A stretch of 64,000 nt of DNA. It comes from Muricea muricata. Its lineage: Eukaryota > Cnidaria > Anthozoa > Malacalcyonacea > Plexauridae. Both the position numbers and the translations under genes were made by a program. The DNA is taken from positions 6,404,115-6,468,114 of the forward strand of contig OY979729.1 of assembly GCA_963855995.1 (NCBI GenBank), read 5' to 3'. This document shows, piece after piece, positions 875 to 64,000 of the stretch (position 1 is its first letter; each line of letters opens with the position of its first letter). The notes beneath the pieces were generated by a model. The model ran no database searches. It worked only from the letters and a program-made list of their open reading frames with translations, and had not been told where the DNA came from.

Positions 875-1723
875 TCACTCTGCAATCAATCGTTTTGAAA
901 CGTCTGTAAGGACATTGATTGGCGTGCGAATATATCTGAGGTAACAATCGGAAGACCATCTTCCTAGCGTTTGAATAAGCCAATGAGGCAAACCTTGGGA
1001 CGCAGCTGTGGTAGCCGCTCCGATTCTAAAGCTGTGGCCTGCATAGTGAGCAGGGTGATGACCACCTTGGGCCAAAAGTATTCGTAGTTCCTTACTAAAT
1101 TGACTACGTGATAAAGGAACACCGTTTGAGTAGCAAAACAATGGTCCCGCACAGTCCGTTGGCGCACGTGAAAGGTAGGTTTGAAGAGCCCTTACTGGAC
1201 AATACATACCAGAATTGCTGCCAATGGTTATTGTGGCGGAGGCTCGAAATTGATCGGTTTTTGACGCTTTAATTCGTAGTTGCAGAAAAACCTCGTTATC
1301 CCCACGTTTTTTGTTATGAAAACTTACATCTGATCGGCAAAGGTTTGTTAAAGAATTATAAGGACCGGAGCAAGTCATTTCACCAATCCGCAAAAACCCG
1401 AAAAATGCTATGGAAATCGCTGCCCAAATCATGGTTTCATCATGTGTCGGTGATGTCCGTGAGTGTAGTATGCGGTGAAACAATTTTAAATGGTCTAATG
1501 CAATTGGTAGGCGTGTTCTTGTAGACACTCCTTTTACTCGCTTTATACCTCGCAAAATATAGTGTAGGCGTTGAAATTTGGTGATTTGAAGGTCGTAGCC
1601 GTTAACCAAATGCATATGGCGTACTGCTGCAAGATAGACTTTGATGGTGTCGGGATTTACCGTCTTAGCGAGAAAAACAGCAAAGTAAATCAGAGTGTTT
1701 TCCGTGGTTGGCAGAAGAGGCAC
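875..1723 (-). CDS. DIRS-type tyrosine recombinase
   Basis: Tyrosine recombinase of the DIRS group, which integrates the circular cDNA of the element. The N-terminal half (to about residue 90) resembles a SAM-like core-binding domain; the catalytic half carries FLRIGEM (first Arg), the HSFRIGAATTAA box (His-x-x-Arg) and GRWSSDCYLRYIRTP with the candidate nucleophilic Tyr near the C-terminus. The frame is intact for 282 codons. It stays open upstream to about position 1855, overlapping the end of the RNase H frame, and that extra stretch also looks like coding sequence; no ATG is obvious, so the protein may be made as a frameshift product or from a spliced message. All catalytic residues I can check are present. 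Confidence 0.8.
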   Translation of the reverse strand: MPLLPTTENTLIYFAVFLAKTVNPDTIKVYLAAVRHMHLVNGYDLQITKFQRLHYILRGIKRVKGVSTRTRLPIALDHLKLFHRILHSRTSPTHDETMIWAAISIAFFGFLRIGEMTCSGPYNSLTNLCRSDVSFHNKKRGDNEVFLQLRIKASKTDQFRASATITIGSNSGMYCPVRALQTYLSRAPTDCAGPLFCYSNGVPLSRSQFSKELRILLAQGGHHPAHYAGHSFRIGAATTAASQGLPHWLIQTLGRWSSDCYLRYIRTPINVLTDVSKRLIAE

Positions 1724-1839
1724 ATACTTATGTAAATGAAATTGATAGTAGAAATTCGTGAACTGTTTTTCGCCACTGCTATAAGTTTTAATCGTACCTT
1801 GAGCTAACGAAGCAAGTTGATAACGACGTAAGTCAGCGT

Positions 1840-41983: not shown

Positions 41984-44289
41984 CAGGGACCACAGAGCAA
42001 TTTTTGGATTGAGGGGGCCGAATGCTTAGCTTCCCAGGGGCGGAAGGGGGCCAGGGCAACAATCAAGTCCCCATTCTTGCTTCGTTCTTTTTCAACTTTT
42101 TTCCGTTTTTTTCATTTTTTAAGTTTTTTTCTTAAACTATCTTGCAGTTGCGACGTGTTCATGTTTCTTGTTGGGTTTCTTTATTAGTAAATACTGGAAA
42201 AAATATATGTATGTTATTTCGACGCCAATCCTTTTGCTGGATGTCAGAGTGCATCTTCCCAAAATCACAGCCAAAATGTTAATGAGGTGCTCTTGATCTG
42301 TAGTCTAGGACCTGTCAAGGACTTTGCATGCGTTTCATTTACCCCAGATAATCTCAACTGTTTTGGGGTGAGTTCACCATGACGAACAAGGACGGGACGA
42401 AATATCCGAAAACGACACCTGCAGAAATAACCCTCTCGTTAGGACTACAACTTCTGAATCATTAGAGATACATTTGTTTTTAAGCTTTTATGGTGTTCAG
42501 AGTGGTCACATTAGGGGTGGTTGTTAGGAAGCAAAAAATCTCTAGCTTTAATATATTCCAAGAATATGGTCATACCTTACTCATCATGGGAAAATTGCTG
42601 AATATGCATAATTTAAGTTACAACATTGGCAAAGTGGATTATTTATATTTTTTACGAAAATTTTTTCGCTGTTGTCAAACTTCACACTTGTTTAAACATA
42701 ATTCTCGTATTCTACATAACAGAGCATGCAAACCTGCCGATATATAGTGCCGATAAATTTACTCACCGACGCCATTTTGCGAATTCGGCCTTGTGTTGCA
42801 GATTCCTTAGCTTTTCACGGTCGTATACTTCACACGAGTTTTAACTGTAGCACACGAACAAACGGTAATGTGGTAAACTTTGGAAGCAAAAATTAAACAA
42901 TTCGACTCGCAGGTTTTGATGCAAACCACTCTGAAGAAATTCCATCACGGGGCAACCGGTCGCCAATTTCAAAACACACACGAACTGCACGAAAAGAACG
43001 CGCGAACTTGATGACAGGGGGGATTGCACATTTTCACGATCGACGCTCGTGCGAGGACCTGAATATAACCAAGAAAGTAATGTTGTTTAGCACAAGATAC
43101 TTGTTTTTGAATTGTTTCTCAAAAATATTTTTGACATGTTTATGTTGAAAATAGCGATCTGAAGAGCTTGCTTTCATTTGATTCATGGGTTTGCTGTGGT
43201 CCTCGCACGAAAACCCCCCCCTGTCATCAAGTTCGCGTGTTCTAGATCTTTTCGTGCAGTTCGTGAGTGTTTTGAAATTGGCGACCGGCTGCCTCGTGAT
43301 GGAATTTCTTCGGAGTGGTTTACATCAAACCTGCGAGTCGAATTGTTTAATTTTTGCTTCCAAAGTTTACCACATTTATACCGTTTGTTCGTGTGCTAGA
43401 GTTAAAACTCGTGTGAAGTGTGTTACATGCTATATTTCGAGAAGACAAGTGACATGACCCAAAGTTGAAGCTATAATTCGCCAAAACAACACTTCGACAA
43501 CATCGAAGATTTTAAAGTCACAGAAGCAACGGGATTCGTTCAAAGCCATTAAGGATGTTCTTCTAATAGTACCTAGCAAAACCAATGGCATTTTGCGGAT
43601 CATCAAAGCAAAGTACGACGGTGAAAAGCGAAGGAATCTGCAACACACGGCCGAATTCGCAAAATGGCGTCGGTGAGTAAATTTATCGGCACTATATATC
43701 GGCAGGTTTGCATGCTCTGTTATGTAGAATACGAGAATTATGTTTAAACAAGTGTGAAGTTTGACTAAAGCGAAAAAATTTTCGTAAAAAATACAAATAA
43801 TCCACTTTGCCGATGTTGTAACATAAATTATGCATATTCAGCAATTTTCCCATGATAAGGTATGACCATATTCTTGGAATATATTGAAGCTAGAGATTTT
43901 TGCTTCCTAACAACCACCCCTAATGTGACCACTCTGAACACCATAAAAGCTTAAAAACAAATGTATCTCTAATGATTCAGAAGTTGTAGTCCTAAGAAGA
44001 GGGTTATTTCTGCAGGTGTCGTTTTCGGATATTTCGTCCCGGATTCAGGTTTGGGCAAATATGCCATCTTGTTCATCATGGTGAACTCACCCCAAAACAG
44101 TTGAGATTATCTGGGGTAAATGAAACAGATACAAAGTCCTTGACAGGTCCTAGACTACTGAGCTGTAACGCTACTTATTGGAAAAACGTCAAGTAGCACT
44201 GGTTATAATTAACCGCCATTCAATCAATCACAGGAAAATTATTGGGGGGGGACCAAGGCCCCTGGGCCCCCCCTCCTCCGCGGTCCCTG
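41984..44289. mobile_element. 2.3 kb fold-back DNA element, TATTA target duplication
   Basis: The ends CAGGGACCACAGAGC and CCTCCTCCGCGGTCCCTG are inverted and match the 18245 MITE. Flanks TATTA (41979-41983) and TATTA (44290-44294) are a perfect 5-bp duplication. The interior is a long palindrome: 42298-about 42990 against about 43190-44163, for example GTTCAGAGTGGTCACATTAG against CTAATGTGACCACTCTGAAC. The right arm keeps about 200 bp (43440-43640) missing from the left. No transposase is encoded, so movement would need help from another element. The superfamily is not certain. Confidence 0.8.
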
Positions 44290-48298: not shown

Positions 48299-48433
48299 TG
48301 TAACCGCCTCGACTTATTCACTCGAACTAAAATACCTTTTATTCAAAGCACACCTTAAATACTGATTACACCTAATCTACATATATTAATGTACATATTT
48401 ACATAGGAACACACCCCCCCTTACGTGCCTACA
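48299..48433 (-). repeat. BEL 3' LTR
   Basis: 135 bp, TGTAACCGCC...GTGCCTACA on the plus strand, matching 54493-54628 with a few substitutions and a small C-run difference. The minus-strand stretch CATCGGTGGGGAGTA just inside it is a plausible polypurine tract. Confidence 0.9.
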
Positions 48434-48529
48434 TACTCCCCACCGATGGGGAGTAATTTAACGACTCCATCTCTACTTGAGACACGTCGGTATTGTTACA
48501 CACGAATATTCGCGTCAATGTCCTTCACA

Positions 48530-49511
48530 CTATCTTTCACACTCTTCTAGTAAGCTAATGTTCACGACTGGTCGCGATAAAACAGTATCTTTTGTTTTTA
48601 TTTCTACTGTTCTTACTTTAGCATCCCGACCGTTGTTCGCCTTCTTTGCAACAGCAGTAGGCCAAAGTCCTCTTCGTATTCTTTTTTCATGCACCAAAAC
48701 TAAATCTCCGACGCGAACGTCACGCTGAGGCTTTATCCATTTTTGGCGTAAATGTAGCGTAGTTAAATATTCTTGAATCCATCGAGACCAAAAATGGTTT
48801 GAAAGGATTTGAGCTTGCTTCCATCTTCTTCGACTCAAGATTGTATCGTTTGCTGAAATCCCCCATAGGTACAACTACAGCAGGCTTCTGCAGTAAAAAA
48901 TTAGCAGGGGTAATCGCGGTTGCATCGGCTGCGTCTTCACTCGATCTTGTTAAAGGACGAGAGTTTAGTATTGACTCGACCTCGCAGAAGACTGTCCGTA
49001 ATACATGCGATTTTACCAGGGCGCCCTTTAGGATAGCTTTCAGGGAACGCTTTATTTCTTTAATTAACCTTTCCCACACTCCCGCGAAATGTGGAGCATT
49101 TGGTGGATGGAATATCCAATTAATTCCTCGATCAGATAATCGTTGTTTGAGGTTCTCATCACTCCAGGTTTTCGCTGCGTTCTTCAATTCTATATCAGCT
49201 CCTCGGAAGTTACTTCCGCAGTCTGATCGTATCTCTTTCGGAGTGCCACGTCGAGCAATAAACTGTCGCAAAGTATTAATAAAATCATCAGTTTCCAACG
49301 AAGGCGTAACTTCCAGGTGTATCGCACGTGTTACCATACAAGAGAAAATGCATCCCCATCTTTTTGGCGTGGACCGACCTTGCTTTATTAACAGTGGGCC
49401 GAGCATATCGATTCCTACGCAGGTGAAGGGGTTCGTACGCAGTGACTCGACATTTAGGAAGAGGAGCCATTTGTTGATGGAGTTTTGGAGCGTGCCCTTT
49501 CCTACACACAA
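48530..49511 (-). pseudogene. BEL integrase core and C-terminal domain
   Basis: The frame 49511-48720 contains VGIDMLGPLLIKQ (first Asp), IRSDCGSNFRGADIE (second Asp) and NAPHFAGVWERLIKEIKRS (Glu), the DDE integrase triad in the BEL arrangement. It is out of frame with the following 48874-48530 segment (WIQEYLTTLHLRQKW, VGDLVLVHEKRI), the DUF5641-like tail that follows BEL integrases. The shift lies near 48850. Confidence 0.85.
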
Positions 49512-50391
49512 AACACTTGTTAATTATTTTTCTAACCAGCGACCGGGCCTTACAGCTCCAGAATCTTTCACGTAGGAGATTTAAAGTGTGTTCTTGCCCA
49601 ATATTGCCATTGTCACAGTGGATGTGTCTTGCTAATAGCTGTGATACCCAGTGGTGTTTCGGCAGCACTGGTGGAAACTTTGCATCATAGCTTAAAGGTG
49701 CAAGCTCCAATCTGCTCCCCACTCGGATCACACCGTCGTCGCCAACAAAAGGATTCAGCCTTGCGATATTGCTTGTCACTTTAACACTCTTCTTCTTATT
49801 GAGATCAGTGTACTCTTCGGAGTACACTTGTATCAGCAGATTCTTAAACCTTGTTAGCCACACGATCTTTGCTTTGAGTACGTTCCAAGATAAATATCGT
49901 TCTAATAGTTCGTATATAGCCGGTTTTTTTACCTCGACTAACGAATTGGATTGGATTAGAACGTCACGGTCTTCTTCTAGTACTTGTGGTAGACTCGTCT
50001 GTGGCCAGTTCGCCTCTGGGGTTTTCAGAAACGATGGACCAACTAACCATCGACATTGGGATGTCATATCAGATGGTTTCATTCCACGAAAGGCGTCATC
50101 GCCTGGATTCTCTTTGCTTGGTCAGTATTTCCATTGTTGTACCTTGGATTTCTTTCTGATTTCCGCTATGCGATTACCAACGTAAACACAGAATCTTTTT
50201 TCTTCGTTTCGAATATACTTAAGTACAACTTCGGAATCGGTCCAGTAATAAATCTTACTGAATGACATCTCGATTTCGTGCTGTACAAGTTCACAGACTC
50301 GAGCAGACAAAACCGCGGCTTGAAGCTCTAGACGAGGTATAGATATTTTTCGTAGAGGTGCAGCTCGAGATTTTCCAACACACGAGCGCAC
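49288..50391 (-). pseudogene. BEL RNase H end and integrase zinc-binding region
   Basis: The frame 50391-50122 gives SIPRLELQAAVLSARVCE and YYWTDSEVVLKYIRN, the BEL RNase H core with Glu and Asp. After a break the frame 50082-49288 gives DGVIRVGSRLELAPL and the HHCC region HWVSQLLARHIHCDNGNIGQ and KIINKCFVCRKG. A shift near 49500 moves into the integrase core frame. Confidence 0.8.
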
Positions 50392-52124
50392 ATCACTCTC
50401 CTATCGGTAAATTCAGTCGGAATGTACGACGCCGCTCCATACCCTATTTCACTGGCATCAGAGAAGTTGTGTAGCTGGATTTCTTTGACACACTTTCTCG
50501 TATCACCGTGACTCGTCTGGCTGGGTTTCTTTTCTTTGGATTTATAACAGCGTGGAATTTTAACCTTTGTAAGGGCTAAGAGATCGTTTTTCCATTGTCT
50601 CCAGTCTCCTAGCTCCGCTTCAGGAAGTCGTTCGTCCCATTCAGCTTTCGTTCGCCACAACTTCTGTAGAAATATTTTAGCTAACAGTGTTACTGGCGCG
50701 GCGAAGCCCAGTGGATCGTATAACGAGGCAACTGTAGACAAAATCCCTCTCTTCGTCTCCGGTTTGTCTACGTCGACAATCTTGAATTGGAAAACATCTT
50801 CTTCAACATTCCATTGAAGGGCCAGCGCTCGTGATATTGGAAGTTTATCTATGCTCAAGTTCAGCATTGGATCTGCTCGTTCTGACTCCGGAATAGTAGC
50901 TAGAACTTGCTTGCTTGAGCTAATCCATTTGGTCAAGCAGAATCCTCTCCTTCGGAGAAGTGCCATTAAATCGCTGGCGAGTTGTATTGCGTCGTTATCA
51001 TCAGGAACCGACTTCAATAGATCGTCCACGTAGAAATCCTTTTCCACGGCATTCACAGTCATTTTATTGAAATCACAGCTGTTATCTCTTGCTGTTTTCT
51101 TTAATGCATAATTAGCAATAGAGGGGGAATCTTTGGCAGCAAATATGTGAACGTTCATGCAGTATTCGTCTGGGTTATCATGGACACCATTTGTAGACCA
51201 CAGAAACCTCAAGGAATCTCGGTCCTTTTCGGGTACTTTCACCTGGTGGAACATCTCTTGGACATCGGCGGCAATTGCTACTTGTTCTTTGCGAAATCTA
51301 AAAAGCACTTCGACTATCTCGTTAGCCAAGTTAGGGCCATGTATGAGGTTTCCATTTAATGATGTGCCTTTAAATTTAGCTGCAACATCAAATACTATAC
51401 GGATCTTTCCAGGCTTGGCTTGGTGATACACAGGATGGTGGGGAAGATACCAAATTGTCGGAGAAGTTTTATTGATTTCTTCGGGTCGTAACTTGCTTGC
51501 GTATCCCTTTTCGACGTATTCTTCTATTTCGGATTGGTACTTCTTGTTTAAATCTTTGTCCCTTTTCAGTCGGGTTTTGAGGTGCTGATAACGCTTGAGG
51601 GCAACGTCACGGTTGTTTGGTAGTTGAGGGTTGTCAACTTTCCACAGCATGCCAATTTCATAATGTCCATTGACAACTCTAGTAGATCCTTCCATCATCT
51701 TTTCTGCTTTCTTACCTTCATTAGACATAACTCTTTTAATACTGGTGACCACGCTAAGACCATCGTCATGGAAAAACCGCTTTACTTCATTAAAAACCAT
51801 TTCTTCTATAGCTGTGTTTGAATGCTGTAACAGGTTAACCTCAACTTGACTTGTCCGAAGTTTGTTCGTTGGTCCCATTAAGGCCCAACCTAATTTGTAT
51901 TTAAATCCCCAGGGTTCTTCTACGCCGCCTGTCTTAACTTGTTCAGTTATGAACATCTCGGGATTATCAGCTCCGATTAGAATGAGGATATCATCCAGTT
52001 CTACTTGGGGGAAGTCGATGTCTGGCTGTACGTCATCCTTGGGTGGCGCAACTTTCAGCTGTACATCTAGACTATCAGTCACGATGACGTTTCGGACCAA
52101 CAACTTCGCGCCGTCTGTCACCAA
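50328..52124 (-). pseudogene. BEL reverse transcriptase
   Basis: A long open stretch of 598 codons. It starts after the protease region (QVELDDILILIGADN) and includes KYKLGWALMGPTNK, RIVFDVAAKFKGTSLN, IAADVQEMFHQVKV (motif A Asp), FYVDDLLKSVPDD (motif C, YVDD) and GFAAPVTLLAKIFLQ. The RNase H start FSDASEIGYGAASYIP with its first Asp follows before the frame shifts near 50385. An in-frame TAG lies just upstream (about 52139-52137). All RT catalytic residues are intact. Confidence 0.9.
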
Positions 52125-52139
52125 GTCAGCAGATTCCTA

Positions 52140-52883
52140 GATGACGTCAACCTTCTCGGCTTCAATCGAGGTCGTTCCAGTCAATGACTTTACGGACAAT
52201 GTGCCTTTCTGACCCTCAAGACTGAGTTTCTTTGCCAGGTTGGTATGGATAAACGAAGCTTCACTTGCTTGATTCAAGAGAGCATACGTAGTTGTCTCCA
52301 GCCCATCAGACCATGGACTTTTACAGCCACTACTGGAAGCGCGGTTGTGTCTCTTATAACTTGAGGGAGAACGCTTGCTGCGTTTGTTTGCACATTCGCG
52401 TCTCGCTTAGTCACTTCACAAATATTAAATTCTTCCTGAGAAGTGTTCGTTTCTTGATCCTTCTGATTGGACAAATGCAGGAGTTTGTGGTGTCTTCTTT
52501 TACAGCCATCTACTTCACATTTGCTTTTCGTGCAAGTTCGCTTGTAGTGCCCCGAAAAAAAGGCACTGGAAACATAACTTCGACTTGAGTACGGCCTTCC
52601 GCCTTTCAACAGCTGTCATTTGGAGGAATTCTTTGCACACTGTAAGGTTGTGATTTCCTTGGCAAACAGGACATACGGTTCTCTTTTCATAACCAAATCG
52701 TCCAGACATGTATTGGGTTGCGAAGCTCGAAATGGGCTCTTCTTTTCTCTTTCTCTCCAATTCGCTTTTAGAACGATTGGAGATTTCTTTTTCTGGGTCT
52801 CTCAGGGTTCCAAACAGCGGGTTATTCTCGGATTCTGCTCTCCTTTGAAGGAATTCTGTCAGATCTCGAAAGTTTGGTGGCAC
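52140..52883 (-). pseudogene. BEL zinc-knuckle and protease region, frameshifted
   Basis: From 52883 the frame gives RDLTEFLQRRAESENN, VCPVCQGNHNLTVCKEF (a CCHC knuckle) and LCFQCL; a shift near 52560 continues with SGHYKRTCTKSKCEVDGC, completing the second knuckle. Further down, ALPVVAVKVHGL marks the start of the DUF1758-type aspartic protease, whose active-site turn falls in a second shift near 52290. An in-frame TGA at 52889-52887 separates this from Gag. Confidence 0.8.
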
Positions 52884-52886
52884 GCC

Positions 52887-54377
52887 TCACTTCCTCAATA
52901 AATCGCTTGCTCGATTTCTCCATCCGGACTGGTTGTAGAACGGTAAACGAGCTGCCACTTTTCGCAGATGATCGGAATTTATTTCATTTAGGCTGTTCAT
53001 CGATTCGAATATTTTCAATACAGATTGACATTTGTCAGCCAGCTTCTGAAGAGCTTTTCCATCCCCATTCGCAATGCTTGGCCCTTTCACTATCGACCCA
53101 ATACAGGCATCAACGATCATGTACGATTGCCCAAAACGGGTTTTCAGAACATTCAAGGCTTCCGCCAAGGCTCCTGATCCCATCCCTTCAAATCTCTCGA
53201 CCGCTTCCTTGGCCTTTCCATCTAAATATTGCATCAAGCGGCTAAGCATCTTGCTCTCCTGAATTGGTTGGGAAAGCACCTGATCCCGAAATCTAGTGGC
53301 GAATCTAAAATAATCTTTAGGATCGCCAGAAAACTTTATTATTTCAATTGGTGGTGTATGTGATAAACTAGCAAGCGTTTCAGCAAGCTGGTGTATTACG
53401 TTCGTGCCTGTCTCTCTATCGCTATTGTTGACGACAGAATAGTTCTGTAAACCTCGTTTCGGGTCAGCAAAGTTAAACTGTCCCTTTGTTCTCGCAGATT
53501 CGGTCGGCAAATTATAGTATTCAAATTTAGGCGCTTCAGTAGGCTTACTGAAATCTGCATAATTGTATAATTTCTCGTCGATATATAACAATTGTTCGTC
53601 CTCGGCAGCGTGTCGCTCTTCTAACTTAGCGATTTCAATTTCGTCCTTTAGCTTTTGTCGTTCTAAAAGCTGGCGCATTTCTAAATTCCGAAGTTCAACG
53701 GTTTTCTCAATTTCTTGTTGATCATGTAGATGATTTAAGCATAGTTCCGCCTTTTCACGCTTCAGTTGAGCCTTACGGGATTTTGAGCTTGCTGCTGATT
53801 TTGCACTGGACGTTAGTGAACTAAAAGAGCCTACACTAACGCAACTTCTTGTCTCGAAATCATCTCGAGTAACCTTTTCGTCAACGCGCGATTGAAGATA
53901 TTGACTAACTTTAGCTAATAGTTCCGGTTTTTTTGCTACTTGCTGTTCGTATACCTCCGTGGCGCTCGCTACGCTTAACTGATTATGATTAGCAAATAAC
54001 AATATTTCATGATGTACTAGACTGAATCGTTCCCATTGTATATTAAATAACTGGACTAGTTCCTTCACTGCATCTTCGTTTTTAGCATCAAATAAAAGTA
54101 CACTTATCTTATTATTGAGCTCAGTTAGATGTCCCTGATGTTCACTTCTTGATCTCTGCAACTTTAACATTTTTTCGTGGTTAACAGCGTCTTGATCCAA
54201 ACGCACATTCGGCCTTCTTTCCCGTCTATCAATCCGATATACGTCCTGACGAACTGCTCCATGCTGGACATCGTCAACTTTATCTCCCGCCTTCGAACTT
54301 GCTCGTCTTAACTGTTCATTTACGAGCTCATCGGTTCTCGCTTCTAGTACGCCATCCTCGAGTGACCCAAGTCCCAA
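52887..54377 (-). pseudogene. BEL Gag (DUF1759-like)
   Basis: 496 codons: an N-terminal charged region, a long coiled-coil stretch (roughly residues 200-270, KSRKAQLKREKAELCLNHLH), then the DUF1759-type capsid part IEIIKFSGDPKDYFRFATRF, MLSRLMQYLDGKAKEAVERF and ALNVLKTRFGQSYMI. It ends at a TGA (52889-52887) where related elements continue in frame into the zinc knuckles. It would form the virus-like particle. Confidence 0.85.
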
Positions 54378-54474
54378 AGCGTCGCTATATATTTCTAATC
54401 TGTCACGTTCTGCAATTTCTCACCGAGGTCTACAACACTCGGGTCAACTGAAAACAACTGAGAAACGTCTATAT

Positions 54475-54492
54475 CCGGCTCGAAGGACCATT
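54475..54492 (-). promoter_or_regulatory. BEL primer-binding site
   Basis: Adjacent to the right LTR on the minus strand lies TGGTCCTTCGAGCCGGAT, complementary to a tRNA 3' end CCGGCUCGAAGGA-CCA with a recognisable T-arm (GGCUCGA). The tRNA identity is not assigned. Confidence 0.75.
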
Positions 54493-54628
54493 TGTAACCG
54501 CCTCGACTTATTCACTCGAACTAAAATACCTTTTATTCAAAGCACATCTTAAATACCGATTACACCTAATCTACATATATTAATGTACATATTTACATAG
54601 GAACACACACACCCCTTACGTGTCTACA
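54493..54628 (-). repeat. BEL 5' LTR
   Basis: 136 bp, TGTAACCGCC...GTGTCTACA; pairs with 48299-48433. A few substitutions separate the two LTRs, so the insertion is not brand new. Confidence 0.9.
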
Positions 54629-54681
54629 AACTGTTCGACTTTAAAACCCGCACAACAACGAATTATTTACGCACAAACGTA

Positions 54682-55487
54682 AGTAGTAATATAGGGGCCG
54701 ATCGAGCCGGATTTTTAGGGGGGCGCAAGGGGGGGCGAGGGGGGCGCAAGGGGCGCGCGAGGGGGGCGCACACATATTGAGGGGGCGCACCCTCATTAGA
54801 ATATCGTGCTCTGATTGGTCGAAAAGCGTACGTACACGCCGTGACGTACGCTATACCCGTGCTCTGATTGGTTAAAACAGCGTACGTATCCCCCGTGACG
54901 TACACCCCGTGAGGGGCGCAAGGGGCGCGCGAGGGGGACGCACACATATTGAGGGGGCGCACCCTCATTAGAATATCGTGCTCTGATTGGTCGAAAAGCG
55001 TACGTACACGCCGTGACGTACGCTATACCCGTGCTCTGATTGGTTAAAACAGCGTACGTATCCCCCGTGACGTACGCTATAGTCGCGCGCTCTGATTGGT
55101 TAATGGTTGGCGTACGTATACCCCGTTACGTACACACCGTGACGTACGCCATAGCCGTGCTCTGATTGGTTAAAACAGCGTACGTATGCCCCGTGACGTA
55201 CACCCCGTGACGTACGCTATAGTCGCGCGCTCTGATTGGTTAATGGTTGGCGTACGTATACCCCGTTACGTACACACCGTGACGTACGCCATAGCTATGC
55301 TCTGGTTGGTTAAAACAGCGTACGTATGCCCCGTGACGTACACGCCGTGACGTACGCTATAGTCGCGCTCTGATTGGTTAAAACAGCGTACGTATACCCC
55401 GTGACGTACGCTATAGTCGCGCTCTGGTTGGTTAAAACAGTGTACGTATACCCCGTGACGTACGCCATAGGCGCGCTCTTTTGCCGA
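54682..55487. repeat. Polinton left terminal repeat with GC-rich and CCAAT/CRE-like array
   Basis: The first 100 bases are G-rich (GGGGGGCGCAAGG words). A block of about 174 bp is duplicated (starting near 54739 and 54913). Then about ten tandem units of 50-70 bp follow, each with CTCTGATTGGTTAAAAC (an inverted CCAAT box) and CGTGACGTACGC (a TGACGT half-site with palindromic CGTACG). The mirror copy is 62880-63770, with one unit more. Confidence 0.85.
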
Positions 55488-55788
55488 CATGATCTGATAT
55501 GTCGCACCAAGAAAGTGAAGAAAGAGGGTCCTAATCAGGATCGTTTATTCTATTGTTGTCCTCATCCAAGAGAAAGTGCTTGTGACTTCTTTGAGTGGAA
55601 ACCTGACGAAGACCCCCTTGAGCCAGGTTGTGTTTGCCTGTTTAGTATGCCACCATCTTACCGATATACAGTGAGAAAGACAGGGGAGACATTTACTAGT
55701 AAGGAAACGGATTCGTAAGAAAGCGTATGACGAATTCCTTCGGCAAAAGGAAATCGGTGAACTGATTCAGGACTTACAGATCTACTAA
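55487..55788 (+). pseudogene. GRF-type zinc-finger protein remnant (left arm)
   Basis: The frame reads LICRTKKVKKEGPNQDRLFY, CCPHPRESACDFFEWKPDE: the GRF pattern (C...GPN-x-x-R-x-F-Y-x-C...C-x-F-F-x-W) known from DNA-processing enzymes such as topoisomerase 3, NEIL3 and APE2. No start codon is in frame. The frame stops at 55718; a second frame (55690-55788) continues with RIRKKAYDEFLRQKEIGELI, a plausible C-terminal helix. It converges on the polymerase C-terminus on the other strand, as a normal Polinton gene pair might. The identity of the parent protein is unknown. Confidence 0.6.
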
Positions 55789-56488
55789 TAACTATAACAA
55801 AAGTGTAACTGTACATATAATTAAATGAACTTAAACATATAACTAAATATTGTTAAACACAAAACCAAATAAAATAGTTTTTGTAAAAGTCCCGTGGAGG
55901 GACAAATTGTGTCCCGCAAGTCCCGCAAAGTGATATTAGGTTTTGCAAAAGTCCCGTGGAGGGACACAAAGTTCCGTGGAGGGACAAATTAAGTCCCGCG
56001 AGTCCCGTTTCAGCAAAACAAACCAATGCCCGCTCACGAACTCGATTCTATTATTGTCCAAAATCACATATATCGTGTTATATGATCCCCCGTGTTGTCA
56101 AGGTTTTATTCGCCTCGGGCAAAGTAAATAAGACACAGATGGTAATAACACGCACACATGTTAGTTGTTGAAAAGATATATTCACAAAATAGCTATTTAC
56201 AGATCAAATATCTAATGGAATGGTTGCAACACCGTCTTCCAAAACTTTACGTTTTGGATAAAAATAACTAAAAGCGTTTTTAACTTGAACATATGTGCAC
56301 ATTGTATTGTTCATAACTCTGAATCCCCTATTTACACCCGACCCACTACGTTTACTTAAAATTACATCTAAATATTTATCTTTATTAATAACATTATTCT
56401 TTTTGTTAACCCCTTTGCAACTAAATTTGTCTTTCCCATCCCCAAAACAATAATACGTTTTACTACATAGACTAATTATCCCATCCCC
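55595..56488. repeat. 894-bp module, left copy 1
   Basis: Runs from GTGGAAACCTGACG in the GRF remnant to the CCCATCCCC word. It holds the GRF tail, the convergent intergenic region and a truncated polymerase C-terminus on the minus strand (56488-56204). It recurs at 56489-57382, and three times in the right arm. Confidence 0.9.
55880..56012. repeat. GTCCCGTGGAGGGAC short-hairpin cluster
   Basis: Three copies of AAGTCCCGTGGAGGGACA (arms GTCCC/GGGAC) and four GTCCCGC(A/G)AGTCCCG-type words lie between the convergent GRF and polymerase genes. The cluster recurs in every 894-bp module (five times in the element). A terminator, RNA-processing or replication role is possible but not demonstrated. 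Confidence 0.8.
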
Positions 56489-57382
56489 GTGGAAACCTGA
56501 CGAAGACCCCCTTGAGCGAGGTTGTGTTTGTCTGTTTAGTATGCCACCATCTTACCGATATACAGTGAGAAAGACAGGGGAGACATTTACTAGTAAGGAA
56601 ACGGATTCGTAAGAAAGCGTATGACGAATTCCTTCGGCAAAAGGAAATCGGTGAACTGATTCAGGACTTACAGATCTACTAATAACTATAACAAAAGTGT
56701 AACTGTACATATAATTAAATGAACTTAAACATATAACTAAATATTGTTAAACACAAAACCAAATAAAATAGTTTTTGTAAAAGTCCCGTGGAGGGACAAA
56801 TTGTGTCCCGCAAGTCCCGCAAAGTGATATTAGGTTTTGCAAAAGTCCCGTGGAGGGACACAAAGTCCCGTGGAGGGACAAATTAAGTCCCGCGAGTCCC
56901 GTTTCAGCAAAACAAACCAATGCCCGCTCACGAACTCGATTCTATTATTGTCCAAAACCACATATATCGTGTTATATGATCCCCCGTGTTGTCAAGGTTT
57001 TATTCGCCTCGGGCAAAGTGAATAAGACACAGATGGTAATAACACGCACACATGTTAGTTGTTGAAAAGATATATTCACAAAATAGCTATTTACAGATCA
57101 AATATCTAATGGAATGGTTGCAACACCGTCTTCCAAAACTTTACGTTTTGGATAAAAATAACTAAAAGCGTTTTTAACTTGAACATATGTGCACATTGTA
57201 TTGTTCATAACTCTGAGTCCCCTATTTACACCCGACCCACTACGTTTACTTAAAATTACATCTAAATATTTATCTTTATTAATAACATTATTCTTTTTGT
57301 TAACCCCTTTGCAACTAAATTTGTCTTTCCCATCTTCAAAACAATAATACGTTTTACTACATAGACTAATTATCCCATCCCC
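56489..57382. repeat. 894-bp module, left copy 2
   Basis: Second tandem copy; its right boundary leads into the complete C-terminal polymerase frame. Confidence 0.9.
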
Positions 57383-57424
57383 TTCCCACTCCACTTTAAA
57401 TAATCCCGGCGTTCTCTTATCCAT
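57098..57424 (-). pseudogene. protein-primed DNA polymerase B, C-terminal piece (left arm)
   Basis: 108 codons with TPGLFKVEWEGDGIISLCSK, TYYCFEDGKDKFSCKGVNKK, GSGVNRGLRV and FSYFYPKRKVLEDGV, the characteristic end of the large protein-primed PolB family of Polintons and adinto-like elements. The palm and thumb are missing upstream: right before the first codons the sequence joins, in opposite orientation, to the polymerase N-terminal part. Truncated further copy at 56488-56204. Confidence 0.7.
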
Positions 57425-57427
57425 CGA

Positions 57428-57892
57428 CTATTTGGTGGAAATTAGCCAGGAAAGCTATTCGCTATTGTTGGACCGTTTCTCTCATGTATTCGACCAAATC
57501 AGTCAACGAATAGTGAACGGTGAGGTATGTTGTGCGTTTGACCACCTAGGTATTTTCGAGACTTGTACTTATTACTATTATGACTATTTAGGTGTGTGCT
57601 GAAAGTGGCGATGACGTTGAAGAAATGGTGCAATGTCTTCTCACATTGAATCAGGTATAGACCATATTGTTGGTCAACTTGATCTGTGTAGTTCTTGCTC
57701 TTATTACTCTTTCTTATTTTTTTTTTTTTTTTGCAGGAGACCCAAGATGAAGCGGACGCTAGTCAAGCAAGCGAGGACGAAGTGTATGAGGTAAATAATT
57801 TTAGAGGTTTAAAATTCTAGTCATGGTTTACTTATCTTTCCGGGCTTGTGATATATATGTGTAGCATTTTTTTTTTCCTCCGTTTTTTTCAG
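57428..57892 (+). pseudogene. acidic, intron-containing segment next to PolB exonuclease (left arm)
   Basis: Three short introns with consensus ends (57525-57591, 57655-57736, 57791-57892) separate exons ending at 57524, 57654 and 57790. Exons 2 and 3 are exactly 63 and 54 bases, all phase 0, giving VCAESGDDVEEMVQCLL and ETQDEADASQASEDEVYE. The first exon gives ESYSLLLDRFSHVFDQISQ. Polypyrimidine tracts (T-rich) precede two acceptors. The product is probably the N-terminal extension of the polymerase or of a protein formerly upstream; I do not recognise it. Confidence 0.55.
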
Positions 57893-58303
57893 GCGAGTGA
57901 GAATGAGGAAAGTGGGGAAGAAAATACAATTAAAGGTTCACCCATTAGAAAAATTGCAAGAAAAACTGGAACTTCATCTCATGGAACTACCTGTTCTGGG
58001 CTTCAATTCCGGAAAGTATGATATCAACGCCGCTAAAAACCCTTTCTTTGCCCACCTCATGAAACATGAGCAAGTTAAGTTTGTGATAAAAAGAAACAAC
58101 AGCCACATGTGTCTCAAGACAATACACTTGAAGTTTCTCGATATTACAAACCACTTGGCTCCTGGATTCTCCTACGAACAATTTTTAAAAGCTTACGAGT
58201 GCACACAGACCAAAGGGTACTTTCGTCTGACAAAGTTAAACTTATCCACCTTACCGCCCCCTGAAGCCTTGAATTCAATGCTTTCCAACACCGCCATTTC
58301 CGA
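57893..58303 (+). pseudogene. protein-primed DNA polymerase B exonuclease piece (left arm)
   Basis: The frame has LMELPVLGFNSGKYDINAAK (Exo II-like N-x-G-K-Y-D), then KFLDITNHLAPGFSYEQF and the YECTQTKGYF region, found between Exo II and Exo III of protein-primed PolB. It is cut at the palindrome centre, before Exo III. The spliced acidic frame enters one base out of register with this frame, so the join is damaged near 57935-57960. Confidence 0.7.
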
Positions 58304-58590
58304 CACCGACGTTATTGTCTTTCATGGTATAGTATAAGTCTTTGTCTTTTTCGTTAAACAGTGAGAAATGCACGTTTGGAACATTCGAATATAAATATTT
58401 CATCGTCAAACCTGGCACACTCACGCCGTCTTTAAACATGTCTATATCTCGCTCCTTCCAAAACTTGTTCATCTTGTCAATAGCCTCGAGGAAGGGAACG
58501 ACATCAAGATTATTATATCAAACCAAAAAGTCACGAAACGTTTCCATGTTGTTATCGTTCCACACGCGCTGGCAGTACTCGTATTGTTCC
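58304..58590 (-). pseudogene. unpaired centre: PolB exonuclease continuation
   Basis: This single-copy segment continues the right-arm exonuclease on the minus strand: WNDNNMETFRDFLV, then a TGA, then YNNLDVVPFLEAIDK (Exo III-like Y-x3-D) and KERDIDMFKDGVSVPGL. The TGA stands where relatives have a Trp codon. It ends where the left arm begins, before the polymerase palm. Confidence 0.65.
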
Positions 58591-59001
58591 TCGGAAATGG
58601 CGGTGTTGGAAAGCATTGAATTCAAGGCTTCAGGGGGCGGTAAGGTGGATAAGTTTAACTTTGTCAGACGAAAGTACCCTTTGGTCTGTGTGCACTCGTA
58701 AGCTTTTAAAAATTGTTCGTAGGAGAATCCAGGAGCCAAGTGGTTTGTAATATCGAGAAACTTCAAGTGTATTGTCTTGAGACACATGTGGCTGTTGTTT
58801 CTTTTTATCACAAACTTAACTTGCTCATGTTTCATGAGGTGGGCAAAGAAAGGGTTTTTAGCGGCGTTGATATCATACTTTCCGGAATTGAAGCCCAGAA
58901 CAGGTAGTTCCATGAGATGAAGTTCCAGTTTTTCTTGCAATTTTTCTAATGGGTGAACCTTTAATTGTATTTTCTTCCCCACTTTCCTCATTCTCACTCG
59001 C
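58591..59001 (-). pseudogene. protein-primed DNA polymerase B exonuclease piece (right arm)
   Basis: Mirror of 57893-58303 and identical to it at the protein level over about 135 residues. Here the frame runs on into the unpaired centre to Exo III. Confidence 0.7.
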
Positions 59002-59466
59002 CTGAAAAAAACGGAGGAAAAAAAAAATGCTACACATATATATCACAAGCCCGGAAAGATAAGTAAACCATGACTAGAATTTTAAACCTCTAAAATTATT
59101 TACCTCATACACTTCGTCCTCGCTTGCTTGACTAGCGTCCGCTTCATCTTGGGTCTCCTGCAAAAAAAAAAAAAAAATAAGAAAGAGTAATAAGAGCAAG
59201 AACTACACAGATCAAGTTGACCAACAATATGGTCTATACCTGATTCAATGTGAGAAGACATTGCACCATTTCTTCAACGTCATCGCCACTTTCAGCACAC
59301 ACCTAAATAGTCATAATAGTAATAAGTACAAGTCTCGAAAATACCTAGGTGGTCAAACGCACAACATACCTCACCGTTCACTATTCGTTGACTGATTTGG
59401 TCGAATACATGAGAGAAACGGTCCAACAATAGCGAATAGCTTTCCTGGCTAATTTCCACCAAATAG
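59002..59466 (-). pseudogene. acidic, intron-containing segment (right arm)
   Basis: Exact mirror of 57428-57892, with the same three introns. Confidence 0.55.
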
Positions 59467-59469
59467 TCG

Positions 59470-59796
59470 ATGGATAAGAGAACGCCGGGATTATTTAAAG
59501 TGGAGTGGGAAGGGGATGGGATAATTAGTCTATGTAGTAAAACGTATTATTGTTTTGAAGATGGGAAAGACAAATTTAGTTGCAAAGGAGTTAACAAAAA
59601 GAATAATGTTATTAATAAAGATAAATATTTAGATGTAATTTTAAGTAAACGTAGTGGGTCGGGTGTAAATAGGGGACTCAGAGTTATGAACAATACAATG
59701 TGCACATATGTTCAAGTTAAAAACGCTTTTAGTTATTTTTATCCAAAACGTAAAGTTTTGGAAGACGGTGTTGCAACCATTCCATTAGATATTTGA
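59470..59796 (+). pseudogene. PolB C-terminal piece (right arm)
   Basis: Mirror of 57098-57424, identical 108-codon frame. It points away from the exonuclease piece, with 15 bases or less between the divergent pieces. Confidence 0.7.
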
Positions 59797-62779
59797 TCTG
59801 TAAATAGCTATTTTGTGAATATATCTTTTCAACAACTAACATGTGTGCGTGTTATTACCATCTGTGTCTTATTCACTTTGCCCGAGGCGAATAAAACCTT
59901 GACAACACGGGGGATCATATAACACGATATATGTGGTTTTGGACAATAATAGAATCGAGTTCGTGAGCGGGCATTGGTTTGTTTTGCTGAAACGGGACTC
60001 GCGGGACTTAATTTGTCCCTCCACGGGACTTTGTGTCCCTCCACGGGACTTTTGCAAAACCTAATATCACTTTGCGGGACTTGCGGGACACAATTTGTCC
60101 CTCCACGGGACTTTTACAAAAACTATTTTATTTGGTTTTGTGTTTAACAATATTTAGTTATATGTTTAAGTTCATTTAATTATATGTACAGTTACACTTT
60201 TGTTATAGTTATTAGTAGATCTGTAAGTCCTGAATCAGTTCACCGATTTCCTTTTGCCGAAGGAATTCGTCATACGCTTTCTTACGAATCCGTTTCCTTA
60301 CTAGTAAATGTCTCCCCTGTCTTTCTCACTGTATATCGGTAAGATGGTGGCATACTAAACAGACAAACACAACCTCGCTCAAGGGGGTCTTCGTCAGGTT
60401 TCCACGGGGATGGGATAATTAGTCTATGTAGTAAAACGTATTATTGTTTTGGGGATGGGAAAGACAAATTTAGTTGCAAAGGGGTTAACAAAAAGAATAA
60501 TGTTATTAATAAAGATAAATATTTAGATGTAATTTTAAGTAAACGTAGTGGGTCGGGTGTAAATAGGGGATTCAGAGTTATGAACAATACAATGTGCACA
60601 TATGTTCAAGTTAAAAACGCTTTTAGTTATTTTTATCCAAAACGTAAAGTTTTGGAAGACGGTGTTGCAACCATTCCATTAGATATTTGATCTGTAAATA
60701 GCTATTTTGTGAATATATCTTTTCAACAACTAACATGTGTGCGTGTTATTACCATCTGTGTCTTATTCACTTTGCCCGAGGCGAATAAAACCTTGACAAC
60801 ACGGGGGATCATATAACACGATATATGTGATTTTGGACAATAATAGAATCGAGTTCGTGAGCGGGCATTGGTTTGTTTTGCTGAAACGGGACTCGCGGGA
60901 CTTAATTTGTCCCTCCACGGGACTTTGTGTCCCTCCACGGGACTTTTGCAAAACCTAATATCACTTTGCGGGACTTGCGGGACACAATTTGTCCCTCCAC
61001 GGGACTTTTACAAAAACTATTTTATTTGGTTTTGTGTTTAACAATATTTAGTTATATGTTTAAGTTCATTTAATTATATGCACAGTTACACTTTTGTTAT
61101 AGTTATTAGTAGATCTGTAAGTCCTGAATCAGTTCACCGATTTCCTTTTGACGAAGGAATTCGTCATACGCTTTCTTACGAATCCGTTTCCTTACAAGTA
61201 AATGTCTCCTCTGTCTTTCTCACTGTATATCGGTAAGATGGTGGCATACTAAACAGACAAACACAACCTGGCTCAAGGGGGTCTTCGTCAGGTTTCCACG
61301 GGGATGGGATAATTAGTCTATGTAGTAAAACGTATTATTGTTTTGGGGATGGGAAAGACAAATTTAGTTGCAAAGGGGTTAACAAAAAGAATAATGTTAT
61401 TAATAAAGATAAATATTTCGATGTAATTTTAAGTAAACGTAGTGGGTCGGGTGTAAATAGGGGATTCAGAGTTATGAACAATACAATGTGCACATATGTT
61501 CAAGTTAAAAACGCTTTTAGTTATTTTTATCCAAAACGTAAAGTTTTGGAAGACGGTGTTGCAACCATTCCATTAGATATTTGATCTGTAAATAGCTATT
61601 TTGTGAATATATCTTTTCAACAACTAACATGTGTGCGTGTTATTACCATCTGTGTCTTATTTACTTTGCCCGAGGCGAATAAAACCTTGACAACACGGGG
61701 GATCATATAACACGATATATGTGATTTTGGACAATAATAGAATCGAGTTCGTGAGCGGGCATTGGTTTGTTTTGCTGAAACGGGACTCGCGGAACTTAAT
61801 TTGTCCCTCCACGGGACTTTGTGTCCCTCCACGGGACTTTTGCAAAACCTAATATCACTTTGCGGGACTTGCGGGACACAATTTGTCCCTCCACGGGACT
61901 TTTACAAAAACTATTTTATTTGGTTTTGTGTTTAACAATATTTAGTTATATGTTTAAGTTCATTTAATTATATGTACAGTTACACTTTTGTTATAGTTAT
62001 TAGTAGATCTGTAAGTCCTGAATCAGTTCACCGATTTCCTTTTGCCGAAGGAATTCGTCATACGCTTTCTTACGAATCCGTTTCCTTACTAGTAAATGTC
62101 TCCCCTGTCTTTCTCACTGTATATCGGTAAGATGGTGGCATGGGTGGCAAGTGGTGGTGGTGAAAGTACAAAAACTGCAAAATAGAGCATTCAGAATAAT
62201 CACACGTGAAAATTACACTACAAGGTCAGTTGATATCTTAAAAACGTTAGGGATTCCGAATCTCGAAAAAAGAAGAATGCAACAACTTGCAATTTTCATG
62301 TACAAGGTAAAAAACCGATTGGTCCCCGATTACTTGTGTGATTTGTTTACAAATGTAAGTGACATACATAATTATGACACGAGACAGTCGGGAGCCGATC
62401 TGATTCTGCCTAAGCCTAAAACAAACAGTATGAAAAATGCATTCTCCTATAGAGGTGCGGAATCCTGGAACACTCTTTCTCCGTCTCAAAAGTCATCAAA
62501 AAGTCTTGCCAATTTTAAGGCTACTTTGAAATACTAACAATAAGAATTATGTCTTTGTTTTTATATTTTTAAAAATTCCTCTAAATATGTTATGTAGCGT
62601 AAGTGTGAGCACGGCCGGTTGGAAGATCACCATTATTTATTTTTATATTTTGTACATAATTTTTTACAGGTGAAATCGTACCGTGTTAAAATATTGTTCA
62701 TAATAATAAAATATTGTTCATAATAATACTAAACAGACAAACACAACCTGGCTCAAGGGGGTCTTCGTCAGGTTTCCAC
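59512..62779. repeat. 894-bp module, three right-arm copies
   Basis: Copies at 59512-60405, 60406-61299 and 61300-62779; the last contains the 586-bp LINE insertion and is 894 bp without it. Copies differ by a few substitutions (for example TGCCGAAGG against TGACGAAGG). The left arm has two copies. Confidence 0.9.
62142..62727 (+). mobile_element. 5'-truncated LINE insertion in the right arm
   Basis: The frame 62151-62537 gives VQKLQNRAFRIITREN, LEKRRMQQLAIFMYKVKN and YRGAESWNTLSPSQKSS, the C-terminal end of CR1/jockey-like RT. The 3' end has a duplicated AATAAAATATTGTTCATAAT tail. Four other module copies in the palindrome show the empty site (GGTGGCAT|ACTAAACAG), so the boundaries are exact. 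No long target duplication is seen. Confidence 0.85.
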
Positions 62780-63000
62780 TCAAAGAAGTCACAAGCACTT
62801 TCTCTTGGATGAGGACAACAATAGAATAAACGATCCTGATTAGGACCCTCTTTCTTCACTTTCTTGGTGCGACATATCAGATCATGTCGGCAAAAGAGCG
62901 CGCCTATGGCGTACGTCACGGGGTATACGTACACTGTTTTAACCAACCAGAGCGCGACTATAGCGTACGTCACGGGGTATACGTACGCTGTTTTAACCAA
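62728..63000 (-). pseudogene. GRF-type zinc-finger protein remnant (right arm)
   Basis: Mirror of 55487-55718, with identical zinc-finger sequence; its tail is displaced by the LINE insertion. Confidence 0.6.
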
Positions 63001-63770
63001 TCAGAGCGCGACTATAGCGTACGTCACGGCGTGTACGTCACGGGGCATACGTACGCTGTTTTAACCAACCAGAGCATAGCTATGGCGTACGTAACGGAGT
63101 GTACGTCACGGGGCATACGTACGCTGTTTTAACCAATCAGAGCACGGCTATGGCGTACGTCACGGTGTGTACGTAACGGGGTATACGTACGCCAACCATT
63201 AACCAATCAGAGCGCGCGACTATAGCGTACGTCACGGGGTGTACGTCACGGGGCATACGTACGCTGTTTTAACCAATCAGAGCACGGCTATGGCGTACGT
63301 CACGGTGTGTACGTAACGGGGTATACGTACGCCAACCATTAACCAATCAGAGCGCGCGACTATAGCGTACGTCACGGGGGATACGTACGCTGTTTTAACC
63401 AATCAGAGCACGGGTATAGCGTACGTCACGGCGTGTACGTACGCTTTTCGACCAATCAGAGCACGATATTCTAATGAGGGTGCGCCCCCTCAATATGTGT
63501 GCGTCCCCCTCGCGCGCCCCTTGCGCCCCCCTTGCGCCCCTCACGGGGTGTACGTCACGGGGGATACGTACGCTGTTTTAACCAATCAGAGCACGGGTAT
63601 AGCGTACGTCACGGCGTGTACGTACGCTTTTCGACCAATCAGAGCACGATATTCTAATGAGGGTGCGCCCCCTCAATATGTGTGCGCCCCCCTCGCGCGC
63701 CCCTTGCGCCCCCCTCGCCCCCCTTGCGCCCCCCTAAAAATCCGGCTCGATCGGCCCCTATATTACTACT
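62880..63770. repeat. Polinton right terminal repeat with array
   Basis: Mirror of the left terminal repeat. It has about eleven CCAAT/CRE-like units against ten, and an extra 11-base G-rich word near 63525. Confidence 0.85.
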
Positions 63771-63776
63771 AACGTA

Positions 63777-64000
63777 GCAGTTTAAACAATAAACATAACG
63801 CGTGTCTCTCCGTTTTCCTACTTCGGATTTGTCCTTCCCCCAGTCGATCGCGCGCATCGGCGCATTTCAATCAATTATGTAACAACTAAACATCAACTAG
63901 AACCGGTAGCTACACCGGCCCCCTATGTATGACAACATTTTGTTTAGCAACTTCTCAATAAAGCTACATGTTCTTTAAAATAACAACAATTGTTTCACTG
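63777..64000. other. flanking DNA, no gene recognised
   Basis: Sequence outside the Polinton-derived element; contains an AATAAA word near 63956 but nothing attributable. Confidence 0.4.

What the first reader, a model, noticed from the sequence alone, without database searches (positions are those of the whole stretch)
54676..63776. A Polinton reduced to a 9.1 kb snap-back palindrome with intact ends and target duplication
Seen: identical inverted termini AGTAGTAATATAGG, a perfect AACGTA 6-bp flank on both sides, arms collinear for kilobases around a 287-bp centre. Known: Polintons/Mavericks make 6-bp duplications, start with AG and use a protein-primed polymerase. Inference: both halves derive from one terminal part of a Polinton, so the element resembles the inverted-duplication defective genomes that protein-primed linear replicons can form by snap-back synthesis. 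Having both cis ends, it could be integrated in trans. I know of no described class of fold-back Polinton of this kind.
Basis: partly seen in the sequence, partly recalled or inferred. Interest (0 to 1): 0.88.

Follow-up and report, generated by a model that had tools for sequence, protein, structure and literature searches.

The report
Mirror-image remnant of a Polinton
A broken copy of a virus-like jumping gene (Polinton) in an animal genome has become a 9.1-kb near-perfect mirror image of one of its own halves, with both ends intact; it looks like a fossil of a fold-back accident, but only this one copy could be examined.

Summary
An element of 9089 bp (54682-63770) has identical ends AGTAGTAATATAGG, a 6-bp duplication AACGTA and inverted arms of 3622 and 5180 bp around a 287-bp centre. 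The arms align with 4 substitutions; they differ mainly by one 894-bp tandem unit, terminal repeats and an insertion in the right arm only, so an assembly artefact is unlikely. AGTAGT ends and 6-bp duplications are the published Maverick/Polinton signature (PMC8097293). Each arm carries a GRF zinc finger and a type-B DNA polymerase fragment; no integrase or capsid domain was found in the 27 of 99 ORFs scanned. The centre continues the right arm's polymerase reading and meets the left arm bluntly: a fold-back junction. The representative of an 87-member protein cluster shares its lesions, and that of a 47-member cluster reads on past the fold-back point, so the parent was probably a defective multicopy lineage. 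Fold-back of extrachromosomal DNA followed by integration in trans is the best reading (0.47); fold-back repair in place (0.3) is not excluded. The genome search did not complete (20 attempts), so copy number and autonomous parent are unknown. New variant of a known kind.

The parts
54676..54681 (.). target-site duplication AACGTA, left copy
   Evidence: exact match to right copy
63771..63776 (.). target-site duplication AACGTA, right copy
54682..58303 (+). left arm, 3622 bp, starts AGTAGTAATATAGG
   Evidence: inverted match to right arm
58304..58590 (.). 287-bp unpaired centre; continues the right arm's polymerase reading (minus strand, past a stop) and meets the left arm at a blunt fold-back junction 58303/58304
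58591..63770 (-). right arm, 5180 bp, ends with the reverse complement of AGTAGTAATATAGG
54682..55479 (+). left terminal region with 54/68/140/172-bp tandem repeats rich in TGACGT and CGTACG
62949..63770 (-). right terminal region, same kind of repeats, copy number slightly different
55374..55715 (+). ORF with GRF zinc finger, left arm (finger in residues 36-76)
   Evidence: PF06839 E 4.6e-14
62701..63000 (-). ORF with GRF zinc finger, right arm
   Evidence: PF06839 E 9.4e-14
55595..57382 (+). two 894-bp tandem units L1, L2
59512..62781 (-). three tandem units R1, R2, R3 in the right arm; R3 is interrupted by the insertion 62142-62725
57101..57427 (-). putative PolB C-terminal fragment, left arm
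   Evidence: ORF; assignment recalled, not tested
59467..59793 (+). putative PolB C-terminal fragment, right arm
   Evidence: ORF; no Pfam match, no relative in viral contigs; assignment recalled
57897..58337 (+). PolB exonuclease-region fragment, left arm; its reading frame crosses the fold-back junction
58518..58997 (-). PolB exonuclease-region fragment, right arm, ends at a stop
   Evidence: some relatives match PF03175 DNA_pol_B_2
62142..62725 (+). 584-bp insertion in the right arm only; judged a non-LTR retrotransposon 3' fragment from recall of its protein sequence
   Evidence: absent from left arm; short A+T-rich repeat at its 3' end; no Pfam match for its ORF

Best explanation
A non-autonomous Polinton that is a fossil asymmetric snap-back genome. 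SHOWN: Polinton-type ends and 6-bp duplication, two near-identical inverted arms, a 287-bp centre contiguous with one arm, a blunt inverted junction, a broken polymerase fragment in each arm, and relatives that read on past the junction. INFERRED: a copy of an already defective, trans-mobilised Polinton lineage was replicated as linear DNA; a displaced or broken strand from one end turned back on itself (or was joined to its sister) within the polymerase gene, so that synthesis ran back to the same terminus and made a molecule with that terminus at both ends. Because both ends carry the AGTAGT end motif, an autonomous Polinton's proteins could replicate and integrate it, leaving the AACGTA duplication. 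Afterwards the left arm probably lost a tandem unit and an insertion entered the right arm.
For: Ends, TSD and anatomy. End motif (AGT)2//(ACT)2 with 6-bp TSD is published for Mavericks (PMC8097293, passages and section 7). Polymerase identity: the right-arm piece has 211 relatives, and four of eight relatives scanned match PF03175, E 4.2e-6 to 0.022, one of them (P0027) above the curated cut-off. Parent lineage: the representative of P0001 (87 members) has the same shifted frame, the same small deletion and ends at the same place; the representative of P0163 (47 members, 98% identical over 70% of the query) continues NNVGGPSIIF where this element reads NNVGV and turns back. One template: P0001's representative differs at 4 of 158 residues, so at least 0.84% of nucleotides; at that divergence 7.8 differences are expected in the inner 921 bp if the arms came from two such copies, and 0 are seen (Poisson 4e-4; but see evidence against). 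The centre is contiguous with the right arm, as a snap-back loop must be.
Against: No second palindromic copy or autonomous parent could be looked for (20 unanswered genome searches). No listed protein cluster covers the fold-back junction: BLASTP coverage of the two junction-crossing queries is at most 93% (120 of 126 listed) and 89% (56 of 56), and none of the 46 sequences read contains it; hidden cluster members could. The one-template argument is weakened by P0002 (one member), which has no substitution and 2 gap columns against the right-arm ORF over 150 of its 159 residues: two copies that alike could also give such arms. The junction shows no microhomology in register (TCGG stands on both sides, out of register), which fits end joining at least as well as strand-primed snap-back. 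Gene conversion between arms could also keep them alike. If the C-terminal assignment is right, more than one rearrangement is needed.
Confidence: 0.47

Rival explanations
1. Rearrangement in place. A normal or internally deleted Polinton was already inserted here. A chromosomal break inside it was repaired by fold-back synthesis or by copying the other end, and repair finished in the opposite TIR by homology, replacing one half with an inverted copy of the other and leaving flanks and TSD untouched.
For: TIR homology makes this possible; Galileo TIRs are proposed to recruit internal sequence by break repair, and the same text says TIR expansion is reported for Polintons (PMC3573991). Break-induced fold-back inversions are documented in yeast (PMC10622511, passages). 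The absence of the junction from the listed clusters fits.
Against: The yeast fold-backs in the passages read use short inverted repeats; by eye none is in register at this junction. A chromosomal fold-back would be expected to run past the element (inference); here it stops exactly at both tips, which requires a switch within the TIR.
Confidence: 0.3
2. Established palindromic family. The fold-back happened earlier and this is one of many copies that move as palindromes with the help of autonomous Polintons.
For: The lineage is multicopy in the protein database (87 members in P0001); palindromic copies could be hidden inside clusters.
Against: P0163's representative (47 members) reads on past the junction, so at least part of the lineage is not folded here. 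No listed cluster covers the junction.
Confidence: 0.11
3. Two different but very similar Polinton copies recombined or were joined head to head, giving the palindrome.
For: Many related copies exist, and P0002 shows that a family member without amino-acid substitutions against the right arm exists.
Against: Arms show 0 substitutions in the inner 921 bp, against 7.8 expected at P0001's divergence; no internal TIR was found at the centre (the end motif occurs only at the two tips).
Confidence: 0.08
4. Assembly or library artefact (fold-back read or inverted chimera).
For: Long palindromes are known artefacts of some libraries (recalled).
Against: The palindrome ends exactly at TIR tips with a TSD and different flanks; the arms differ by a 584-bp insertion, an 894-bp unit and smaller indels.
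Confidence: 0.04

Closest known systems
Polinton/Maverick (PMC8097293: section 7 and passages read)
   Same: AGTAGT end motif, 6-bp TSD, inverted termini, type-B polymerase fragment
   Different: 9.1 kb instead of 12.7-24.6 kb (intact vertebrate elements); TIR is the whole 3.6-5.2-kb arm instead of 46-1447 bp; no integrase, capsid, ATPase or protease domain in 27 of 99 ORFs scanned; polymerase broken
AAV asymmetric snap-back genomes (PMC8235507: passages read)
   Same: one end of a linear DNA genome duplicated in inverted form with an unpaired loop; end joining proposed by those authors
   Different: virion DNA of a parvovirus, not an integrated Polinton derivative
Galileo/Foldback long-TIR elements (PMC3573991: abstract, Discussion, part of the references read)
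   Same: long TIRs with internal tandem repeats whose number differs between the two ends; internal sequence recruited into the TIR; non-autonomous two-TIR copies
   Different: P-superfamily transposon; no DNA polymerase (recalled)
Fold-back/palindromic derivatives of adenovirus and of yeast linear plasmids (recalled; Daniell 1976 not held)
   Same: protein-primed linear replicons giving inverted-duplicated defective DNA
   Different: not integrated; not read here
Mu killer of maize (recalled)
   Same: inverted partial duplication of an autonomous element, able in principle to give hairpin RNA
   Different: a Mutator transposon; silencing shown there, nothing tested here

Membership tests
Polinton/Maverick | 6-bp target-site duplication | tested here: met
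   AACGTA both sides, exact
Polinton/Maverick | 5'-(AGT)2//(ACT)2-3' or (AG)3 end motif | tested here: met
   AGTAGT...ACTACT against PMC8097293
Polinton/Maverick | inverted terminal repeats | tested here: met
   outer 913 bp without a substitution; far longer than the published vertebrate range
[quoted passage not shown]
   fragments only; window pieces have no PF03175 match, four of eight relatives do; model of a relative too poor to use (mean pLDDT 53; no PDB match with E<=0.001)
Polinton/Maverick | retroviral-like integrase, capsid proteins, packaging ATPase, protease encoded | tested here: not met
   none among 27 of 99 stop-to-stop ORFs scanned in 54600-63850 (count); hence a non-autonomous derivative, not a Polinton proper
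Polinton/Maverick | autonomous relative with the same termini in the same genome | not tested
   The genome search unanswered 20 times
snap-back genome | one end inverted-duplicated around a loop contiguous with one arm | tested here: met
snap-back genome | exists or replicates as extrachromosomal DNA | not testable with these tools
   needs DNA from tissue
Foldback/Galileo (P superfamily) | P-type transposase, Galileo-type TSD | tested here: inconclusive
   no transposase domain among 27 of 99 ORFs scanned; Galileo TSD length not checked

The most novel reading that the evidence does not exclude
The element is an integrated defective-interfering genome of a Polinton: a self-complementary molecule made during protein-primed replication, replicated and integrated by a helper Polinton, and transcribed from its repeat-rich ends into a kilobase-long hairpin RNA that could silence the helper's polymerase, a Polinton counterpart of Mu killer. 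The evidence does not exclude this; the RNA part is untested.
Probability: 0.15. Interest if true: 0.85.

Novelty: new variant of a known kind. Interest (0 to 1): 0.52.

Why it matters
Protein-primed replication of Polintons is inferred from sequence; I know of no direct observation of their replication intermediates (recall). An integrated snap-back molecule with intact ends and TSD would be a physical trace of such an intermediate and would suggest that two identical termini are enough for integration in trans. Because relatives that read past the junction exist, the order of events can be tested by ordinary genome comparison. If the hairpin is transcribed, it could also link Polintons to small-RNA silencing.

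Tried and rejected
Genome search for other copies, empty site and autonomous parent: the genome search 'own' was sent unchanged 20 times and each time answered busy or unreachable. Viral contigs: exonuclease piece, C-terminal piece and alignment A1 gave no relative; a 17-base terminus pattern hit one contig (L001), taken as chance after looking at its ORF coordinates and 251 bases; a TIR-repeat pattern gave none. Terminus pattern in prokaryote genomes: none. PHROGs: one weak match, E 0.041, unknown function. PDB by sequence: only weak 3A-like matches, E 0.019-0.073, taken as chance. Structure model of relative P0014: mean pLDDT 53, no PDB match with E<=0.001; not used as evidence. Weak Pfam matches P3A, LEF-3, zf-ChsH2 and CofB_C lie below their cut-offs and are taken as chance. 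Microhomology at the junction: none in register by eye. On the minus strand the reading runs ...GTCGGTG and resumes TCGGAAATGG; relatives encode Gly-Gly here, so the next parental base should be G, not T. Literature: all 10 paper searches used; none of the listed titles or abstract openings describes a palindromic Polinton, but lists were cut (25 of 224; 12 of 30; 15 of 20; 12 of 16; 12 of 124), and only open-licence PMC papers are held. PMC354903 and PMC10748475 are not held. Papers opened but of little use here: PMC5033970, PMC6431247, PMC9415595, PMC11071308 (passages).

Full report
WHAT IS THERE. The element occupies 54682-63770 (9089 bp) and is flanked by AACGTA at 54676-54681 and 63771-63776. 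Its tips are AGTAGTAATATAGG and the exact reverse complement; that 14-mer occurs nowhere else in the window. The left arm is 54682-58303, the centre 58304-58590 (287 bp), the right arm 58591-63770. In the optimal alignment the arms differ by 4 substitutions, all within the tandem units; pairing the units outer-to-outer and inner-to-inner gives 5. The outer 913 bp and the inner 921 bp have no substitution. The remaining differences are small length changes (1, 2, 11, 68 bp), one 894-bp unit and a 584-bp insertion in the right arm (the insertion was left out of the alignment). The longest exact inverted repeat is 1178 bp here against 117 bp in 1-54675.

NOT LIKELY AN ARTEFACT. A library or assembly fold-back would not be expected to stop at both TIR tips, to carry a target duplication with different flanks, or to differ by a private insertion and a private tandem unit. 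Raw reads were not available.

WHAT THE ARMS CONTAIN. From the tip inward: a terminal region with tandem repeats in which TGACGT is 15.0 per kb against 0.46 per kb in 1-54675; a GRF zinc finger (PF06839, E 4.6e-14 left and 9.4e-14 right); 894-bp tandem units (L1, L2; R1, R2, R3); a 109-aa ORF that I recall as a Polinton PolB C-terminus (not tested; no Pfam match); then, in the opposite orientation, a polymerase piece that seems to be split by intron-like stretches and runs through the exonuclease region into the centre. L1 pairs with R3 and L2 with R1; R2 is the extra unit and has four private changes, which suggests that the left arm lost a unit (inference). If the recalled assignment is right, the opposite orientation of the two pieces means that an internal rearrangement came before the fold-back, since both arms share it.

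WHICH FAMILY. Mavericks have 6-bp duplications and most often 5'-(AGT)2//(ACT)2-3' ends; intact vertebrate elements measure 12,723-24,620 bp with TIRs of 46-1,447 bp (PMC8097293 passages and section 7). The ends and duplication here match; size and TIR length do not. The exonuclease piece has 211 relatives at E<=0.001 (best 120 listed). Of eight relatives scanned, P0148, P0125, P0027 and P0041 match DNA_pol_B_2 (PF03175) at E 2e-5, 2.1e-5, 4.2e-6 and 0.022; only P0027 exceeds the curated cut-off; the other four, among them P0001 and P0163, do not match. The window pieces themselves have no PF03175 match. No integrase, capsid, ATPase or protease domain was found in 27 of the 99 stop-to-stop ORFs (45 aa or more) of 54600-63850; many of the other 72 look like mirror or tandem copies, which I did not count. 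So it is filed as a non-autonomous Polinton derivative. The host is not identified; the named relatives come from Branchiostoma belcheri, Actinostola and Porites evermanni, so an animal, perhaps a cnidarian.

WHERE IT FOLDS. On the minus strand the centre continues the right arm's polymerase reading (past a stop) as far as KDNNVG and then turns into the left arm. Relatives continue NNVGGPSIIF: the representative of P0163 (47 member sequences) does so and is 98% identical over 70% of the query. The representative of P0001 (87 member sequences) has the same shifted frame, the same small deletion and ends after FRDFLV as here. Thus the parent was probably a defective, multicopy lineage that is not folded at this point. 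Only representatives are visible, that P0001 and P0163 belong to the same copies is inferred, and how many sequences lie in one genome is unknown. No listed cluster covers the junction: coverage is at most 93% and 89% of the two junction-crossing queries (junction after residue 135 of 146 and near residue 72 of 80), and none of the 46 sequences read shows it. The junction looks blunt: the parental base after GTCGGTG should be G (glycine codon), the acceptor begins with T, and the bases before it do not match; TCGG stands on both sides but out of register.

ONE TEMPLATE? P0001's representative differs from the right-arm ORF at 4 of 158 residues. At that minimum divergence 7.8 differences are expected in the inner 921 bp and 31 in 3622 bp if the arms came from two such family members; 0 and 4-5 are seen (Poisson 4e-4, and 1e-8 for up to 5). 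Against this, P0002, a one-member cluster, has no substitution and 2 gap columns against the same ORF over 150 of its 159 residues, so very similar copies, or another record of this same locus, do exist. Gene conversion between the arms is a further caveat; the insertion and unit differences show that it has not been complete.

HOW IT PROBABLY AROSE. Best reading: fold-back or sister joining of linear Polinton DNA, giving a molecule with the same terminus at both ends, then integration by a helper. The closest described molecule that I read about is the asymmetric AAV snap-back genome with a loop, for which the authors favour end joining (PMC8235507, passages); a blunt junction agrees with that. 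Main rival: break repair in place, finishing in the opposite TIR; TIR extension by break repair is proposed for Galileo, where the authors add that inverted-repeat expansion has been reported for Polintons (PMC3573991; the works they cite were not read). Break-induced fold-back inversions are shown in yeast (PMC10622511, passages). The readings are told apart by whether the junction occurs at other sites, which could not be tested: the genome search was unanswered in all 20 attempts.

VERDICT. Observation confirmed, interpretation partly supported, new variant of a known kind. Interest 0.52: the anatomy is unusual and clean, but it is one copy, with a plausible in-place origin and known analogues in other DNA elements.

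Noticed in passing
42297-44161: A second long imperfect palindrome: outer arms 91.9% identical over 553 columns, inner part about 76%; no clear target duplication seen by eye.
   Followed up: partly
48299-54632: BEL/Pao-type retrotransposon (Peptidase_A17 E 2.2e-28, Integrase_H2C2, DUF1759; rve below its cut-off) between repeats of about 140 bp, 95.7% identical; the palindrome's target duplication starts 44 bp further on.
   Followed up: partly
875-3867: Tyrosine-recombinase-like ORF (Phage_integrase, slightly below its cut-off) next to a reverse-transcriptase ORF on the minus strand, as in DIRS-like retrotransposons (family recalled).
   Followed up: partly
54682-55479 and 62949-63770: Terminal tandem repeats dense in TGACGT (CRE-like) and ATTGG (CCAAT-box-like) motifs, in the left copy about 33-fold and 4-fold over 1-54675: possible promoter or origin arrays (motif names recalled).
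   Followed up: partly
57430-57900: The polymerase region upstream of the exonuclease piece looks split by introns; relatives P0003, P0005 and P0016 read out of a pyrimidine-like tract into the same exon (by eye). Intact vertebrate Mavericks are reported intronless (PMC8097293).
   Followed up: partly
P0007 (protein cluster, 14 members): Its representative ends MKDNNVGGWNGN at almost the same place where this element folds back, while several other relatives read GGPSIIF; possibly an independent breakpoint or frameshift nearby.
   Followed up: no
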